Source: Lachnospiraceae bacterium | GTDB taxonomy: Bacteria > Bacillota > Clostridia > Lachnospirales > Lachnospiraceae | Assembly (NCBI GenBank): GCA_017520425.1 | Contig: JAFXFO010000040.1 | Location: 1-64,000, forward strand | DNA: 64,000 nt | Reading direction: 5' to 3' | Part shown: piece after piece, positions 1 to 53,877 of the stretch | Layout of the letters: each line of letters starts with the position of its first letter | How positions within the stretch are numbered: the stretch's first letter is position 1 | Made by a program: the position numbers and the translations under genes | Notes under the pieces: generated by a model | What the model was told of the DNA's origin: nothing | Seen by the model: only the letters and a program-made list of their open reading frames with translations | Database searches by the model: none

Positions 1-62
1 TCAGTTGGTAGAGCAAAGGACTGAAAATCCTTGTGTCGCTGGTTCGATTCCGGCTCTGGGCA
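1..62 (+). tRNA. tRNA-Phe (GAA), 5' end missing
   Basis: The window starts inside a tRNA gene. The anticodon stem-loop reads GGACTGAAAATCC, giving anticodon GAA (Phe). It is followed by a T arm GCTGG-TTCGATT-CCGGC and the 3' acceptor strand TCTGGGC with discriminator A at 62. CCA is not encoded. The 5' acceptor strand and part of the D arm lie outside the window, so the acceptor pairing cannot be checked. Confidence 0.93.
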
Positions 63-2654: not shown

Positions 2655-4454
2655 TTACAACTCCAATTTTTCCATTTCATCCAGTATCTCGCACATCACA
2701 TCTAAGGCATCCTGAATAGGCTGAGGACTTTCCAAATTCACGCCGGCTATTTTGAGAAGCTCTATCGGTGACTTAGTACAGCCCCCGGATAAGAATTCTT
2801 TGTAGGCCTTTACGGCAGATTCCCCATTCTTTAGAATATTGCGGGCGATGGCTACGGCGCTGGCAAAACCAGTGGCATATTGATAAACATAGAAATTGTA
2901 GTAGAAATGTGGGATTCGCGCCCATTCTACGGCGATTTCCTTATCGGAAACCATATCCGGTCCGTAATATTTGCAGTTCAAATCATAATAAATTTTGCAT
3001 AAAACATCTGCGGTCAGACTTTCTCCGGCTTCTGCCAAGCGATTGGTTTCCCGCTCATATTCCGCAAACATGGTCTGGCGGTAAACAGTTCCCTTGAAGC
3101 TATCCAAATAGTGGTTTAACAGGTACGCACGCTCTTTTTTGTCGGTGGTATTTGCCAGCAGGTATTCCATTAACAAAATTTCATTACAGGTGGAGGCTAC
3201 TTCTGCTACAAAAATCTTGTATTCAGCATAGATAAAGGGCTGGGTCTTGTTGGAAAGGTATGAATGCATGGCATGACCCATTTCGTGAGCCAGAGTAAAC
3301 ATATTGTCCAAAGTATCATTGTAGTTTAATAATACAAAGGGATGGGTGTCGTAGGTATCGGATGAGTAGGCACCACTACGCTTTCCTACGTTTTCATACA
3401 CATCAATCCAACGGTTGTTAAAGCCTTCTTCAACCACTTTCACATAATCTTTACCAAGAGGGGCTAATGCCTTTAAGACTATAGCCTTTGCCTCATCGTA
3501 GGATACCTTTTTGGCAGAGTCCGGTATCATGGGAGTATATATATCATACATATGCAGTTCATCTACGCCCAATAGCTTCTTGCGCAGGGAAACATAGCGA
3601 TGCATGTTGTCCAAATTCTGATTTACGGTCTGAATCAGATTATCATAAACAGAAGGAGATACGTTATTTGCGTTCACCGCAGCTTCCAGAGTAGAGCTGT
3701 ATTTGCGCATCTTCGCACTGAAAATCTGCTTCTTCACCTGGCCGCTGTAAAGGCTTGCCAGAGTATTTTTATATTGGTCATAGGTAGCATATAACTTTTC
3801 AAAAGCCTCTTTTCTGACAGTTCTGTCAGATGATTCCTCAAGAGCAATAAAACGTCCGTGAGAGATGCGTACGGTATTGCCATTTTCGTCCAGCATTTCC
3901 GGAAAGCTTAAGTCGGAATTGGTAAAAATAGAGTAAGTTTGGGAAGGGGTACGACCCATTTCAGCGGTCATAGCCATGACCTTTTCCAATTCTGCACTCA
4001 GGCGATGAGGCTTCAGACGTTGGATTTCGTCAATTAATCCGCGATAAAGCACAAGAGCCGGTTGTTCTGCATAAAACTGTTCCAAAGCGGCACTATCCGC
4101 CTCCAAAATCTCCGGTTCAATAAAGGATAATGTGCTGCTGATATTAGAAATAATGCTATGCAGCTTCTGGTTCATACCCTGGTGTGTGGTATCCGATGTA
4201 TCCTGGTCGCTTAAGCGGCTGGCGTAGTTCATAGCCTTGTAAGCTATACGCTCTATGTCAGCATTTTGAGCCAAAGTAGTCAGGAGATTCTGGGCAGATG
4301 CACAAACGGTACCTTCCATTTTAGCCAATTCTTCTGTCATAGCCTGTATATTAGCCACATCTGACTCCCATGCGGGAATATTCGCATACATATCTGCCAG
4401 ATTCCAGGTAAATTCTTCTTTTACTTCGCTTCGTTTGGGTAATTCCTTTGCCAT
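2655..4454 (-). CDS. pepF: Oligoendopeptidase F (peptidase family M3)
   Basis: 599 residues, normal length for the family. The zinc site HEMGH is at residues 390-394 with the third ligand glutamate at ~418 (FVAEVAST). The C-terminal half has the usual HFYYNFYVYQYATGFASA helix. The enzyme is a cytoplasmic zinc metallopeptidase that trims short peptides of roughly 7-17 residues (family knowledge). The ATG start is preceded by AGGAGG at ideal spacing. A strong promoter lies just upstream, so it is probably transcribed alone. No residue anomaly was noticed. Confidence 0.95.
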   Translation of the reverse strand: MAKELPKRSEVKEEFTWNLADMYANIPAWESDVANIQAMTEELAKMEGTVCASAQNLLTTLAQNADIERIAYKAMNYASRLSDQDTSDTTHQGMNQKLHSIISNISSTLSFIEPEILEADSAALEQFYAEQPALVLYRGLIDEIQRLKPHRLSAELEKVMAMTAEMGRTPSQTYSIFTNSDLSFPEMLDENGNTVRISHGRFIALEESSDRTVRKEAFEKLYATYDQYKNTLASLYSGQVKKQIFSAKMRKYSSTLEAAVNANNVSPSVYDNLIQTVNQNLDNMHRYVSLRKKLLGVDELHMYDIYTPMIPDSAKKVSYDEAKAIVLKALAPLGKDYVKVVEEGFNNRWIDVYENVGKRSGAYSSDTYDTHPFVLLNYNDTLDNMFTLAHEMGHAMHSYLSNKTQPFIYAEYKIFVAEVASTCNEILLMEYLLANTTDKKERAYLLNHYLDSFKGTVYRQTMFAEYERETNRLAEAGESLTADVLCKIYYDLNCKYYGPDMVSDKEIAVEWARIPHFYYNFYVYQYATGFASAVAIARNILKNGESAVKAYKEFLSGGCTKSPIELLKIAGVNLESPQPIQDALDVMCEILDEMEKLEL

Positions 4455-48573: not shown

Positions 48574-49008
48574 ATGATTAAGCAGGCAACTAAAAAAGAG
48601 GCGATGTGTTTAGCCAAGCTGGCAATTCAGATGTGGGAAGACAATGAAATAGAGGAATTGGTCGGACATTTTGAGGGATTGGTGGCTGATGAGGAGGCGG
48701 CCTGTTTCTTGAAATACGTGGATGAAAAGGCAGTAGGCTTTGCTCAGTGTCAGCTTCGGCATGATTATGTGGAAGGGACGGAGACTTCACCAGTGGGGTA
48801 CCTGGAAGGAATCTTGGTGGAGGAAGCATATCGTCATAAAGGATATGCCAAGGAGCTTCTGCGAGCATGCGAGCAGTGGGCCAAGAGTAAGGGCTGTAGC
48901 GAGTTCGCCAGCGATTGCGAGCTGGATAATGAGGAAAGCCTGCGCTTCCATATGGCCATGCAGTTTGAGGAAGCAAATCGGGTGATTTGTTTTAAGAAGA
49001 ATATTTGA
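48574..49008 (+). CDS. AAC(6')-type aminoglycoside N-acetyltransferase-like GNAT
   Basis: 144 residues from the ATG at 48574. It shares the AAC(6') pattern throughout: FLKYVDEKAVGFAQCQLRHDYVEGTETSPVGYLEGILVEEAYRHKGYAKELL, then WAKSKGCSEFASDCELDNEESLRFH. The YVEGTETSPVGYLEGI block is especially typical. Family members acetylate the 6'-amine of aminoglycosides; whether this one gives resistance is unknown. The upstream region contains the phased GATACT motifs. Confidence 0.82.
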   Translation: MIKQATKKEAMCLAKLAIQMWEDNEIEELVGHFEGLVADEEAACFLKYVDEKAVGFAQCQLRHDYVEGTETSPVGYLEGILVEEAYRHKGYAKELLRACEQWAKSKGCSEFASDCELDNEESLRFHMAMQFEEANRVICFKKNI

Positions 49009-49042
49009 TTTAGAGGGTTGTTATAGGGGATTTTCGTGGGAT

Positions 49043-49527
49043 AACAGATATATGTGGGTAAAAGCAGGATTCTATCTGCAGTATATGGTGATGGACTTGG
49101 TGCTATGACATATATAAAGCAGGAAATAGCGAAAGCTATCTGCAACTATGGATAGGTTTTGTGGCGGTATGACAGATAGAAGTCCGGTAAATAAGAAAAC
49201 TATCTGTTAAGAAATGAACAAGAAAGAGTCATACGACGGATAGCAATGTGGAAAAAAACAAACTATCCGTTAAAGCGCAAGAAAGAGAAGATTGTTTGAC
49301 AGATATATTTGCTGAGATGTGCAAATATATCTGTAGGATATGCAAAAAAGAGATGTCTGTACGACATATAGAAGATGATTAACATGGAAATCTGTCCGTA
49401 TGAACGAGAACTGGAGAGTTGATTTGGGCGGATAGAAGGAGTAGGAATAGTTAATCTATCCGTCAGCCATGAAATAAGGAAAGTATATAGGCATATAGGA
49501 ACGTCGATATTTGTAATGCTATCTGCA
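49043..49527. repeat. Tandem array of eight hairpin units, period 63-65 bp
   Basis: Eight units, each a 9-bp arm, a 19-20-nt loop, the complementary 9-bp arm, then a 25-27-nt spacer. Left arms start at 49043, 49107, 49171, 49235, 49298, 49363, 49427 and 49490; right arms at 49072, 49136, 49200, 49263, 49327, 49392, 49456 and 49519. Examples: GACAGATAG/CTATCTGTT, GACGGATAG/CTATCCGTT, GGCGGATAG/CTATCCGTC. Arms differ between units but stay paired. Loops and spacers are dissimilar except for purine-rich AAGAAAGAG-like spacers. The 595-bp gap (49009-49603) holds no gene. Confidence 0.85.
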
Positions 49528-49603
49528 GCAAGGCCTAATGTTGGGTTTGTTGCAAGACAATCTACATAGAAACATCTATAAATTTTGGGGGATGAAATAG
49601 CAA

Positions 49604-50194
49604 ATGATGCAAACAAACAATGTAGAAACAAAAAATACTTATATTGAAACGGAGCGTTTATTTTTGCGCCACTTTCAGGAAGGGGATGCGGAGGATGTAT
49701 ATGAATATCTGGCGGAGCCGGCGGTAAATTGCTTCGCCTGCATGAAGCTGAATTCATTAGAAGATGCTAAGGCTGCAGTGAAGGAACGGGCGGAGGAGGC
49801 AGAGTACTATTTTGCCATCGTGCTGAAAGAAAGCAGCAAGGTGATAGGAGAGATTTTTGCGTATCCTGAGTTACACTCTCCGGAGGAGGAAGCAATAAGG
49901 GATACCTTCAGTCCCTGCTGGATGCTGAATAAAGAATACTACGGCAAGGGCTATGCCTACGAGGCGGCGAAGGCAGTTTTTGATTATCTGTTTCAGGAAA
50001 AAGGAGCCAGACGTATCTATGCGTATACGGAGGACTATAATGTGTCCTGTCAGGGGCTATGCGAAAAGCTGGGCATGCGTAGAGAAGGATTATTTAAGGA
50101 GTTTGTCTCTTTTGTAAATGATGAGGATGGAAAACCCATATACGAAAATACATATCAATATGCCATACTGAAAAAAGAGTGGGAGAGTAGGTAG
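49604..50194 (+). CDS. GNAT acetyltransferase, RimJ/RimL type
   Basis: 196 residues. It starts with a strand TYIETERLFLRHFQEGDAEDVYEYL, has FAIVLKESSKVIGEIFAYPEL, the acetyl-CoA-binding NKEYYGKGYAYEAAKAVFDYLF and GARRIYAYTEDYNVSCQGLCEKLGMRREG, closing with YEN-YQYAILKKEW. RimJ/RimL relatives acetylate protein N-termini or small molecules. It is the first gene after the hairpin array and leads an operon-like set with the APH gene 12 bp downstream. Confidence 0.85.
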   Translation: MMQTNNVETKNTYIETERLFLRHFQEGDAEDVYEYLAEPAVNCFACMKLNSLEDAKAAVKERAEEAEYYFAIVLKESSKVIGEIFAYPELHSPEEEAIRDTFSPCWMLNKEYYGKGYAYEAAKAVFDYLFQEKGARRIYAYTEDYNVSCQGLCEKLGMRREGLFKEFVSFVNDEDGKPIYENTYQYAILKKEWESR

Positions 50195-50206
50195 GAGGAG
50201 TATCAT

Positions 50207-51202
50207 TTGAAGAGTTTGTTAGAGCGTGCAAAGGAACTATTTGAACTGGATGGCTATGAATGCAGTCCTGTGAATGAGCATGAGGGTGGTCGTAACTCAG
50301 TTTATGTTTGTAGTATGGATGAGGAGAAGCAGTATGTGCTTCGTATTTCCGGACTGAGTGACCGGTGTGAGGAAGATTATTTGGCGGAGACAGAGTATGT
50401 GCGTTTCTTGGCAGAGAATGGAGCACCGGTGGCAGATGTGATTTCTTCTGTGCAGGGCAAATTGGTAGAGTGCGTGGAATGGGAAGGCACCATGAATTAT
50501 ATCAGTCTGTTTGCTTATGCTAAGGGTATGCTGATTTGCGACAATGGATACCGCTATCGGGAAGGTGCACCTTTGGAGGAGTATTTCTACAATACCGGAA
50601 AGGTTTTGGGCATCATTCACAGACTGTCCAAGAACTATGCCCCTATCCATAGACGCGCGGAATACTTTGACAAATACAATATGGAATATATAAACAAGTT
50701 GATTCCGGATACTTACGGAGAACTGAAGGCGGCCATTTCCAAGCGTTTGGAGGCATTCAAGGCTTTGCCGATGGATGCAGAAGCTTATGGGCTGGTACAT
50801 TTTGATTTCAGTGACGGCAACTATCATATTGATATGAGCAATGGTGATATAACAACTTTTGATTTTGATAATTGTATGAACTGTTGGTACATGTTTGATT
50901 TGGCCAATCTCTGGACCCATGGGGAAGGTTGGTTTCGATTTGAGCAGGACCCGGCAAAGCGCATGGAATACATGAAGGGGTATTTTAAGGTTATCTTGGA
51001 AGGCTACCGAAGTGAAACAGATGTGGCGGAGGAACTTTTGGAACAGTTGCCCTTGTTTATTGATATGGTGCTGATCGAAAATATTGTAGATGAGTGTGAA
51101 TGTGCCCTGCGGGAAGGAGAAGAAGTAGATTACGAGGATATCGAGGATGCGGCGGAGTGTCTCATAGAGAACATACCATACGCGGGAATTGGAGAGGAAT
51201 AA
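50207..51202 (+). CDS. Aminoglycoside/choline-phosphotransferase family protein
   Basis: 331 residues from a TTG start with AGGAGGAG upstream. It has the ATP-binding VYVCSMDEEKQYVLRISG, the catalytic GLVHFDFSDGNYHI (HxDxxxxN) and ITTFDFDNCMNCWYMFDLANL (metal DFD). Length exceeds APH(3') and fits homoserine-kinase-type or choline-type members of the superfamily. Substrate unknown. The next gene begins 2 bp after the stop codon. Confidence 0.82.
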   Translation: MKSLLERAKELFELDGYECSPVNEHEGGRNSVYVCSMDEEKQYVLRISGLSDRCEEDYLAETEYVRFLAENGAPVADVISSVQGKLVECVEWEGTMNYISLFAYAKGMLICDNGYRYREGAPLEEYFYNTGKVLGIIHRLSKNYAPIHRRAEYFDKYNMEYINKLIPDTYGELKAAISKRLEAFKALPMDAEAYGLVHFDFSDGNYHIDMSNGDITTFDFDNCMNCWYMFDLANLWTHGEGWFRFEQDPAKRMEYMKGYFKVILEGYRSETDVAEELLEQLPLFIDMVLIENIVDECECALREGEEVDYEDIEDAAECLIENIPYAGIGEE

Positions 51203-51203
51203 T

Positions 51204-51740
51204 ATGAATGTGATTGAGGCAATAAAAAACAGACACAGCTACAGAGGGAAATTTAAATCCACACCGGTACCGAGAGAGGATTTAATCACGATTATGGAAG
51301 CCGCTTTGGCGGCACCTTCCGGCTGTAATAAGCAGACCACCAGCCTGATAGCGGTGGACGATCCGGAGGTGTTGAAAAAGATTTTTGCAGTTATCGACCC
51401 GCCGGTGGGCGAGACGGCTCCTGCTATCATTTGCGTTCTGACCCGCAGAATTTGTGCTTACAGGGACAAGTGCTTTGCAGTGCAGGACTATTCAGCTGCC
51501 ATTCAAAATATGCTACTTGCCATCGTAGAACTGGGCTATCAGAGCTGCTGGTACGAGGGACATATTACAGACGAGGATAGAATCGGTTACCGGATGGCGC
51601 AGGTGCTGAATGTGCCCGATGAGTACGAGCTGGTGTGCTTCCTGCCGGTGGGCATTGCGGAAGAAGAGCCTGTAGGGCCAATGAAGCAGGCTTTTGAGGA
51701 GAGAGCTTGGTTTAATGGATTTGGGGAGAAAGAATTATGA
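51204..51740 (+). CDS. Nitroreductase family protein
   Basis: 178 residues. FMN-binding pattern at the start: IEAIKNRHSYRGKFKSTPVPREDL and AALAAPSGCNKQTTSLIAVDD, plus AVQDYSAAIQNMLLAIVELGYQSCWYEGHI. Probable oxidoreductase for flavins, nitro compounds or quinones. The stop codon overlaps the next start by ATGA. Confidence 0.9.
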   Translation: MNVIEAIKNRHSYRGKFKSTPVPREDLITIMEAALAAPSGCNKQTTSLIAVDDPEVLKKIFAVIDPPVGETAPAIICVLTRRICAYRDKCFAVQDYSAAIQNMLLAIVELGYQSCWYEGHITDEDRIGYRMAQVLNVPDEYELVCFLPVGIAEEEPVGPMKQAFEERAWFNGFGEKEL

Positions 51741-52364: not shown

Positions 52365-52982
52365 ATGCTATACGATTACATTGTCAAAAATTTTGAAAAA
52401 GACGAACCCATTTTTTTGGTAGAACTTCCGGGAAAGTCCAGAGAGGCAGTAAGACAGGAGATGAAAAAGCTTACGGACGAGGGGAAAGTGGAAAGATTGT
52501 ACAATGGTGTTTATTATCGTTCCTATCAAACGATTTTGGGTACGAAAGGGAAAGTTTCAATGGATAAGTTTATACAGAAGAGATATCTGGAAGTAAACGG
52601 AGAAGTGACCGGATATATTACGGGATTACAACTGGCGAATATGTATGGATTTACCACACAGAACCCTTCCTGCTACGAAGTGTGTTCTAATGAAGCGTCT
52701 ACAAAACAGCGAAAACTGGATATCGACGGGAGACAGCTTATTTTGTATAAGCCCGTAGCGGATGTCTCAAGGGAAAATAAGGGAGCACTACAGTTCTTGG
52801 ATTTTATGAGTACCATTGACAAATATAGCGAGGTTGGTGGAGACGAATTTGTGTTTAAATTAAGAGCGTTTACTGATTCCATAGGCGTGGATTTCAGACA
52901 GGTAAAACGCTATATATCGTTATTCCCGGACAGAGTGTACCGCAATATTTATCAAGGAGGTTTGATGAGTGAGTTGGTATAA
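52365..52982 (+). CDS. abiEi: AbiEi-type antitoxin / repressor
   Basis: 205 residues. Winged-helix N-terminus (SREAVRQEMKKLTDEGKVERLYNGVYYRS) and a C-terminal domain with YITGLQLANMYGFTTQNPSCYEVCSNEASTKQR. This fits the type IV antitoxin AbiEi. The C-terminus overlaps AbiEii by 14 bp. The promoter carries a dyad that it probably binds. In other bacteria AbiE aborts phage infection. Confidence 0.85.
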   Translation: MLYDYIVKNFEKDEPIFLVELPGKSREAVRQEMKKLTDEGKVERLYNGVYYRSYQTILGTKGKVSMDKFIQKRYLEVNGEVTGYITGLQLANMYGFTTQNPSCYEVCSNEASTKQRKLDIDGRQLILYKPVADVSRENKGALQFLDFMSTIDKYSEVGGDEFVFKLRAFTDSIGVDFRQVKRYISLFPDRVYRNIYQGGLMSELV

Positions 52983-53877
52983 AGATCAATTTGATGAATG
53001 GAAAGAGATTATTGAGACTGTGGCAAGGGAACTGGGAAGAAGTGAACAAATGGTTGAGAAAGACACCATTCAGTCTATGTTTTTACATGAGTTGGCAAAG
53101 TCGGAACTACCATTTGTATTCAAAGGAGGGACTTCGCTTTCCAAGGTATATCATTTGATTGAGCGCTTTTCCGAGGATATAGATTTATCCATGAAGCGTA
53201 AACCTACACAATCAGAGAAAGTAAAAGCAAAGGAATTAATTATTGATATTGCTGAAGAGTTAGGATTGAAGTTGTTGAATTCGGGGGAAGTTATGTCCCG
53301 GTATGATTACAATAAATACGTGTTTAAATATAACTCTATGTTTGCTACAGTACCTTTAGAGATTATTGTGGAAACAAACTATTGTCTGGCGGCATATCCT
53401 GCAAAGGAGAAAAGCGTAGGTAGTTTTGTTGGAGATTTTTGTAAGAATCGGGGAATCACATTGCCTATCTCTTTCGACGCAGCAGAAGTGATTATGAATG
53501 TTCAAACAGCAGAGAGAACATTGATAGACAAGGTATTTGCAGTGTGTGATTATAGAATACAGAATATGTTGGACAGGGATTCCAGACATTTATACGATAT
53601 ATGTAAGTTATTAGCACAAGTGGAACTAAATGCGTACATGGATGAGTTGATTGATGCGGTTAGAGATGATAGAATGAAATCTAAGAACAATCCCTCTGCA
53701 CGGCTTCAATACAATATTCCGAAGATGTTAAAAGAAATTATTAATAGTAGATTTTATGAATCAGATTACAGAAACGTTACACAGAAATTACTTTATGAGG
53801 ATGTTTCGTATGATTATGCAGTAGAGCATGGAATTGCGATAATAGCGGAGTCAGATATATTTGAATATAAGAAATGA
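52969..53877 (+). CDS. abiEii: AbiEii-type nucleotidyltransferase toxin
   Basis: 302 residues from a GTG start inside the end of abiEi, with AAGGAGG 8 bp upstream. The DNA polymerase-beta-like nucleotidyltransferase core has FVFKGGTSLSKVYHLIERFSEDIDLSM, the GGTSLSK and DxD motifs needed for activity. It transfers nucleotides to tRNA or inhibits growth in known systems. With abiEi it makes a type IV toxin-antitoxin pair. Confidence 0.88.
   Translation: MSWYKDQFDEWKEIIETVARELGRSEQMVEKDTIQSMFLHELAKSELPFVFKGGTSLSKVYHLIERFSEDIDLSMKRKPTQSEKVKAKELIIDIAEELGLKLLNSGEVMSRYDYNKYVFKYNSMFATVPLEIIVETNYCLAAYPAKEKSVGSFVGDFCKNRGITLPISFDAAEVIMNVQTAERTLIDKVFAVCDYRIQNMLDRDSRHLYDICKLLAQVELNAYMDELIDAVRDDRMKSKNNPSARLQYNIPKMLKEIINSRFYESDYRNVTQKLLYEDVSYDYAVEHGIAIIAESDIFEYKK

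What the first reader, a model, noticed from the sequence alone, without database searches (positions are those of the whole stretch)
49043..49527. Tandem array of eight structured hairpins with a fixed 64-bp period and co-varying arms
Each unit has 9-bp arms, a 19-20-nt loop and a 25-27-nt spacer. The repeat spacing is 63-65 bp for every step. Arm bases change but pairing is kept: GACAGATAG/CTATCTGTT, GACGGATAG/CTATCCGTT, GGCGGATAG/CTATCCGTC, GACAGATAT/ATATCTGTA. Loops and most spacer bases are unrelated, so recent duplication alone does not explain it; selection on the paired arms does. Alternating inverted words every ~30 and ~34 bp would also suit a protein binding about every three helical turns. 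It is not a normal CRISPR, because the direct repeats are not conserved and there are no cas genes. It lies upstream of a GNAT-APH-nitroreductase-GNAT run.
Basis: partly seen in the sequence, partly recalled or inferred. Interest (0 to 1): 0.85.

Follow-up and report, generated by a model that had tools for sequence, protein, structure and literature searches.

The report
Helically phased DNA arrays of a nuclease
The eight regularly spaced inverted words look like one of several scattered copies of DNA binding-site arrays that go with a little-known family of bacterial nuclease-like proteins, whose genes often carry such an array in front of them, with the spacing locked to whole turns of the double helix.

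Summary
The array is real: eight 33-34-bp dyads at 63-65-bp steps. The claimed co-variation is not: in 55 non-redundant units of the family, word positions pair as often as when arms are shuffled between units (0.782 against 0.784). The same words, span and period recur at four other places of this genome and in relatives. In three genomes one array lies just 5' of a gene for a ~265-aa protein ending in a PD-(D/E)XK-like domain. Among relatives of that protein a tandem array lies upstream in 40 of 73 testable loci (downstream 3 of 79), with other words and periods, but 52 of 55 periods lie within 1.5 bp of a multiple of 10.5 bp (about a third expected), with about 20 changes of class on the protein tree. 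Such phasing fits double-stranded DNA, not RNA hairpins. Gene-less arrays disperse: one ~430-bp array stands at four sites of a Butyrivibrio genome. Best reading: phased binding sites of a stand-alone nuclease, spread in trans, working like REP/RAYT but with an unrelated enzyme. Binding, nuclease activity and purpose are inferred.

The parts
49045..49078 (.). dyad unit 1, 34 bp, words CAGATAT / CTATCTG
49109..49142 (.). dyad unit 2, 34 bp, words CATATAT / CTATCTG
49173..49206 (.). dyad unit 3, 34 bp, words CAGATAG / CTATCTG
49237..49269 (.). dyad unit 4, 33 bp, words CGGATAG / CTATCCG
49300..49333 (.). dyad unit 5, 34 bp, words CAGATAT / ATATCTG; holds a perfect 14-bp inverted repeat (49299-49312 / 49321-49334)
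49365..49398 (.). dyad unit 6, 34 bp, words CATATAG / CTGTCCG, the lowest-scoring unit
49429..49462 (.). dyad unit 7, 34 bp, words CGGATAG / CTATCCG
49492..49525 (.). dyad unit 8, 34 bp, words CATATAG / CTATCTG
49007..51221 (.). segment present here and absent at the same gene order in relative G088 (L162): array, second GNAT-like gene (49604-50194) and APH-like gene (50207-51202)
   Evidence: flanks 83-90% identical, GNAT followed within 50 bp by nitroreductase in G088; product names are readings from sequence, no family search was run on these genes

Best explanation
The array is a set of double-stranded-DNA binding sites for a stand-alone nuclease encoded elsewhere in the same genome (G000:C4:49339-50130, 264 aa). 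Proposed working: a nuclease dimer binds each 34-bp dyad, one monomer per ~11-bp half-site (yRRCRKATAGAW), with the catalytic domains over the A/T-rich centre; neighbouring dimers sit on the same face of the helix, which is why the period is a whole number of turns (here six). The array in front of the nuclease gene probably also controls that gene. Gene-less arrays, like the one in this window, are copied to new places in trans with the help of the nuclease and keep their words under selection, much as REP sequences relate to their RAYT. Shown here: recurring arrays, gene-array linkage, helical quantisation, absence of covariation, dispersal of gene-less copies. Inferred: that this protein binds the words, is an active nuclease, forms side-by-side dimers, and drives the copying.
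For: Same words, 34-bp span and 64-bp period at five loci of the own genome. Over 101 genomes of the genus the two-unit pattern hits 5, the reversed control 1; four of the five (G000, G042, G073, G070) are the four genomes with the best matches to the protein among 49 of 138 with any (three of them built the profile, G070 did not). The gene adjoins one array in three genomes. Array upstream of relatives: 40 of 73 at autocorrelation >=0.5, against 3 of 79 downstream and 1 of 57 far upstream. Periods: 57 non-redundant arrays, R = 0.87 at 10.5 bp; 52 of 55 within 1.5 bp; 20 changes of class on the tree. A second copy in the own genome (C21) has its own array with other words, period 73. B. proteoclasticus P18 carries the word pair of its own copy in about ten array loci, mostly at 54-bp steps; four copies of one ~430-bp array at different sites are 96.6-98.4% alike with shared ends. 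Empty sites. E161, D192 and E207 (numbering of L059) are invariant in 67 sequences; 67 of 67 match the C-terminal part of PADLOC PDC-S68. No partner gene recurs near 80 loci beyond 9 of 80.
Against: 33 of 73 upstream regions do not reach the 0.5 threshold. In the own genome C28:27790 shows no clear array, and C28:33309 has irregular spacing with best lag 82, outside the helical classes. G070's array is only two dyads, 2 mismatches from the pattern, and lies away from its nuclease gene, which has no own-type array. G001 also has a weak 2-mismatch pattern hit (chain score 17.7; above 100 shuffles of that locus, which do not correct for picking the locus from a genome scan) and no match to the protein. 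No binding, cleavage or movement was observed. The N-terminal half matches nothing known; likeness to integrase arm-binding domains was tested and failed. No terminal repeats or target-site duplications were established for the moved copies, so nuclease-driven movement is inference; exchange between other repeats is possible. Related loci are not independent, which inflates the Rayleigh figure.
Confidence: 0.62

Rival explanations
1. Autoregulation and sequestration: the nuclease is a host-used or defence enzyme; the arrays are operators and sinks that keep it bound and inactive, and dispersed arrays add sink capacity. Movement of arrays is incidental.
For: Array sits 5' of the gene; words stay conserved while loops drift; all 67 proteins resemble the C-terminal domain of a PADLOC candidate-defence model; no recurring partner gene.
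Against: Does not by itself explain recently copied gene-less arrays; full-length relatives are rare in the virus, plasmid and phage collections searched; no neighbour family recurs beside it in more than 9 of 80 loci, though neighbours were not searched for defence families.
Confidence: 0.2
2. Chromosome-organising sites: the protein binds phased arrays as an architectural or segregation factor, as ParR binds parC (recalled), and cleavage is secondary.
For: Helically phased tandem sites beside the gene of a presumed binding protein; several loci per genome.
Against: Invariant acidic residues of a nuclease-like motif; several diverged copies per genome with different words; patchy presence, 49 of 138 genomes in the genus.
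Confidence: 0.06
3. A transcribed array of RNA hairpins or guide RNAs (CRISPR-, TIGR- or type III toxin-antitoxin-like) serving the nuclease.
For: Tandem units directly upstream of a nuclease-like gene; TIGR stem-loop arrays have palindromic units (PMC12045711, passages).
Against: No covariation; period locked to DNA turns; no phage match to the array at E<=1e-5 and only weak ones at E<=10; no Rfam match in the array.
Confidence: 0.05
4. Ordinary decaying tandem duplication without function.
For: Some arrays are recent tandem duplications (L026:1818-2170).
Against: Words stay intact while loops carry little information, the same words recur at unlinked loci, and periods are quantised across about 20 changes.
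Confidence: 0.03

Closest known systems
REP / REPIN elements with RAYT (REP-associated tyrosine transposase)
   Same: Short palindromic words, each set tied to one enzyme gene; gene-less copies scattered between genes; tandem arrays with regular spacing known (PMC3116915: abstract, section 12 and passages).
   Different: RAYTs are Y1 (HUH) enzymes acting on single-stranded hairpins (recalled); here a PD-(D/E)XK-like protein, arms that do not co-vary, and spacing in whole helical turns. The word 'helical' does not occur in the main text of PMC3116915.
TIGR-Tas
   Same: Tandem array next to a nuclease gene, including stem-loop arrays (PMC12045711: 12 of 62 passages).
   Different: TIGR arrays go with Nop-domain proteins and mostly 9-nt spacers that serve as guides; here pairing does not co-vary, no phage match stood out, and Pfam shows no Nop domain among the 25 families listed for 67 members.
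PDC-S68 / PDC-S69 / HEAT_CxxC_PDDEXK of PADLOC
   Same: C-terminal nuclease-like domain (67, 49 and 43 of 67 members).
   Different: PDC-S68 models are 1202-1273 positions long; here a ~265-aa stand-alone protein with a different N-terminal half and an array.
parC/ParR-type centromeres and iterons (recalled)
   Same: Tandem sites beside the gene of their binding protein.
   Different: Several arrays per genome, a nuclease-like protein, and no recurring partner gene.
Type III toxin-antitoxin (ToxIN; recalled)
   Same: Tandem repeats directly upstream of a nuclease gene.
   Different: Repeats there are RNA of ~36 nt with conserved sequence (recalled); here DNA-phased dyads with unrelated interiors and gene-less copies.

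Membership tests
REP/RAYT | HUH (Y1) transposase encoded near cognate repeats | tested here: not met
   Associated protein has PD-(D/E)XK-like motifs and PADLOC PDC-S68 matches; no transposase family among the matches shown
REP/RAYT | Palindromes kept able to form hairpins in single strands | tested here: not met
   12 of 55 units pair over all 7 word positions; pairing equals shuffled
REP/RAYT | Gene-less cognate copies dispersed in the genome | tested here: met
CRISPR-Cas | Near-identical direct repeats with unique spacers | tested here: not met
   Only ~11-bp half-sites conserved; interiors of dyads unrelated
CRISPR-Cas | cas genes adjacent | not tested
   No cas family search was run on neighbouring genes; only shows that no neighbour family recurs in more than 9 of 80 nuclease loci
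TIGR-Tas | Nop-domain Tas protein | tested here: not met
   No Nop domain among the Pfam matches shown (3 proteins; 25 of 55 families listed for 67 members)
TIGR-Tas | Array transcribed and processed to 36-nt guides | not testable with these tools
   no expression data
Structured RNA | Compensatory changes in paired arms | tested here: not met
   no Rfam match in the array at gathering threshold
PD-(D/E)XK nuclease | Conserved acidic catalytic motif | tested here: met
   Invariant E161, D192, E207 in 67 sequences; motif assignment by eye and by PADLOC model names. The usual lysine of the motif is replaced by histidine (EH), so activity is not assured
PD-(D/E)XK nuclease | Fold of the superfamily | not testable with these tools
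   structure prediction switched off; no PDB relative by sequence
Type III toxin-antitoxin | RNA antitoxin repeat neutralising a ToxN-like toxin | not testable with these tools
   No ToxN family among the matches shown for P0001-P0003; neutralisation needs an experiment

The most novel reading that the evidence does not exclude
A widespread, undescribed class of two-part genetic element of gut bacteria: a PD-(D/E)XK nuclease and a cognate array of double-stranded dyads whose period evolves only in whole helical turns, spreading gene-less arrays in trans by a dsDNA mechanism distinct from HUH, DDE or recombinase-based mobility.
Probability: 0.5. Interest if true: 0.92.

Novelty: categorically new. 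Interest (0 to 1): 0.85.

Why it matters
If right, genomes of rumen and gut bacteria from at least three phyla (Lachnospiraceae and other Clostridia, Treponema, Fibrobacter in the record titles; phyla by recall) carry an unnamed nuclease-array system, in places in several copies per genome. It gives many natural word-protein pairs for learning how such a protein reads DNA, a clean case of helical phasing shaping repeat evolution, and a possible new way for small repeats to spread in bacterial genomes.

Tried and rejected
RNA hairpins / covariation: rejected. Rfam: only a tRNA at window 1-62. Guide spacers against phages: the window array with flanks gave nothing at E<=1e-5 and the array alone seven records at E 2 or worse, four of them near-copies of one 21-bp exact match in Brevibacillus phages; the array beside the nuclease gene gave 241 records at E<=10, of which 10 rows were seen, best E 0.1, nine of them one stretch at the array's edge shared by Staphylococcus phages. 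I read these as chance; no shuffled control was run. Integrase arm-domain homology of the N-terminal half: hhalign probability 0.1. PDB by sequence: nothing convincing. PHROGs: scattered weak matches, some named endonuclease or Holliday junction resolvase. Partner gene: largest neighbour cluster 9 of 80 loci. Target-site duplication at the moved copies: two of the three complete copies can be read with a 3-bp direct repeat, the third not, with boundaries chosen by eye; not claimed. Exact 7-mer dyad search found clear dyads in many systems but none in several strong arrays (e.g. L029, L034, L044, L045), so I do not claim dyads for every system; each array also allows two dyad readings, so spans are approximate. 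Eleven further nuclease copies (150-base window): nine reach 0.5, lags 73, 82, 54, 84 (and 94), 63, 75, 53, 52, 74; eight of nine fit the 10.5-bp classes, 82 does not. Rows dropped: L066 and L120 (in-frame stop) from alignments; alignment A3 holds 67 of 78 stop-free loci; the tree holds 100 of 110 loci (9 duplicates or stop-bearing, and L120). Periods 30 (L055) and 39 (L074) are probably detection artefacts and were kept in the counts; double-length lags were halved by rule. One search checked the doubtful G070 and G001 hits. Literature: seven searches of the PMC library, of which only the top rows were seen (15 of 385, 0, 4 of 4, 6 of 19, 10 of 177, 1 of 1, 0), found no description; PMC3733652 was seen in passages; subscription journals and preprints are not covered.

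Full report
Observation. The window holds eight inverted word pairs at 49045-49525. Seven span 34 bp and one 33 bp; starts are 63-65 bp apart. Chance does not give this: a generic chain test finds 5 linked dyads, at most 2 in 2000 Markov shuffles and at most 2 in the rest of the window. The arrays of the 13 loci examined lie in intergenic gaps: no ORF above 87 aa was kept over them by a longest-first choice, though the purely mechanical list shows an antisense 164-aa frame at 49263-49757.

Not alone. A fixed-spacing search of the own genome showed the same words, span and period at C4:50182-50661, C15:29975-30391, C32:7844-8259 and C10:56582-56859. A two-unit pattern over 101 genomes of the genus hit 5: G000 (19), G042 (18), G070, G073 and G001 (1 each); the reversed control gave one hit in 101 genomes. 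The G070 and G001 hits both have 2 mismatches; their chain scores are 26.5 and 17.7, both above 100 shuffles of their own locus, which does not correct for picking the locus from a genome scan. I count G070 as probable and G001 as doubtful. G042 also holds recently duplicated units (L026:1818-2170), so arrays grow by tandem duplication and then diverge inside while the words stay.

No pairing constraint. From 65 units with a 34-bp dyad, 55 are less than 65% identical to each other. Their profile is yRRCRKATAGAW, then about 16 bp of low information with an A/T-rich centre at positions 16-19, then the near mirror image. Pairing between the two words is that of shuffled halves (0.782 against 0.784), and inner positions pair no more than shuffled. 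In the 32 own-genome units there is a slight excess (p 0.046), mostly position 2; in the 19 units of G042 there is a deficit (z -2.6). Independent degenerate half-sites are what a DNA-binding dimer leaves; a structured RNA should show compensatory change.

The partner. In G000, G042 and G073 one array lies 5' of a gene for a 264-275-aa protein (the gap is 20-290 bp); the G042 and G073 proteins are 61 and 56% identical to the own one. Its C-terminal half carries RSKSE, YPDF and WEHxG motifs and matches the C-terminal end of the PADLOC models PDC-S68 (67 of 67 relatives); Pfam, NCBIfam and PDB give nothing useful. I read it as a PD-(D/E)XK nuclease domain; this rests on motif pattern and model names. 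Viral contigs gave 9 loci, eight of them the C-terminal domain only. Plasmids gave 9 records, C-terminal domain only, annotated where named as ATPases or helicases. Phages gave two unannotated human-faecal records, one a near full-length relative (90% covered, 34% identical, E 2e-32, on 4.2 kb), one partial.

Arrays go with the gene. In the 80 loci, upstream 900-bp stretches reach autocorrelation 0.5 in 40 of 73 long enough to test, downstream in 3 of 79, far upstream in 1 of 57. Words differ between systems, e.g. CTGCCTA/TAGGCAG, CCGACTA/TAGTCGG, TACCTAT/ATAGGTA. A second copy in the own genome (C21) has a period-73 array with GCTTAG/CTAAGC words; C28:33309 has irregularly spaced TGCCCAA/TTGGGCA words with best lag 82; C28:27790 shows no clear array (words by eye).

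Quantised period. Of 102 loci, 91 remained after collapsing near-identical upstreams; 57 of them at the 0.5 threshold peak at 53/54, 63/64, 74/75 and 84/85 bp, with almost nothing between; the best-fitting unit is 10.5 bp, R = 0.87. In the tree set, 52 of 55 periods fall within 1.5 bp of a multiple of 10.5 (exceptions 39, 44, 86), where 24 of 74 integers would. Periods changed class about 20 times on a tree of 100 proteins (quick tree, 41 of 97 inner branches weak), so shared descent alone does not explain it. In many systems the dyad span is about 33-39 bp whatever the period (34+30 here, 34+20 in B. proteoclasticus). This is the strongest sign that the arrays act as double-stranded DNA with neighbours on one helical face.

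Dispersal. In B. proteoclasticus P18 the word pair of its own copy has 41 places with up to 2 mismatches (reversed control 4), among them about ten array loci, mostly at 54-bp steps; only C41 holds the nuclease locus L104. Four gene-less copies of one ~430-bp array at different sites are 96.6-98.4% identical with common ends, one of them cut short at one end. The 2-kb nuclease-array stretch of P18 is missing between the same flanks (77 and 88% identical) in a related Butyrivibrio, whose own copy lies about 1.4 kb further on beside a second repeat. At the window site, relative G088 has xylulokinase-GNAT-nitroreductase without array, second GNAT and APH; whether array and genes came or went together is open. 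Neighbour genes do not recur beyond 9 of 80 loci.

Working model and limits. Shown: recurring arrays, gene-array linkage, helical quantisation, lack of covariation, recent dispersal of gene-less arrays. Inferred: binding by this protein, nuclease activity, stacked dimers, autoregulation, nuclease-driven copying. I put about 0.85 on 'cognate double-stranded binding arrays of this protein family' and about 0.5 on nuclease-driven spread. In what it works like, REP/RAYT is nearest; in membership it is not one, since enzyme type and hairpin feature fail. Seven searches of the PMC library, top rows only, found no description; that library lacks most subscription papers and preprints.

Noticed in passing
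window 52365-53877: Two adjacent ORFs (205 and 302 aa) that look, from recall, like an AbiEi/AbiEii-type toxin-antitoxin pair; not searched.
   Followed up: no
window 1-62: A tRNA cut off by the window start (Rfam RF00005).
   Followed up: no
G148:C39:8491-8835, G131:C120:34510-34899, G035:C83:2804-3133: The same C-terminal nuclease-like domain inside open frames of 1246, 1236 and 1322 aa, like the long PDC-S68 models; a possible source of the small nuclease.
   Followed up: no
L104:3180-3290; L123:1500-1570 and 3250-3320: A second Butyrivibrio intergenic repeat (..gcgagagcagaacttccttgtgaaa..) beside the nuclease loci and the empty site; may have mediated the exchange.
   Followed up: partly
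G042:C15:187139-187394 (L024) and G042:C4:9328-9584 (L026), contig coordinates: In G042 arrays often come as blocks of two dyads, with the next block 94-95 bp on, perhaps a minimal unit.
   Followed up: no
L046 and L051, about 1.05 kb downstream of the nuclease gene: A further array with a repeat like the upstream one lies downstream.
   Followed up: no
MT839528.1, 380-1084: A near full-length relative on a 4.2-kb human-faecal record labelled bacteriophage; whether it is phage DNA was not checked.
   Followed up: no
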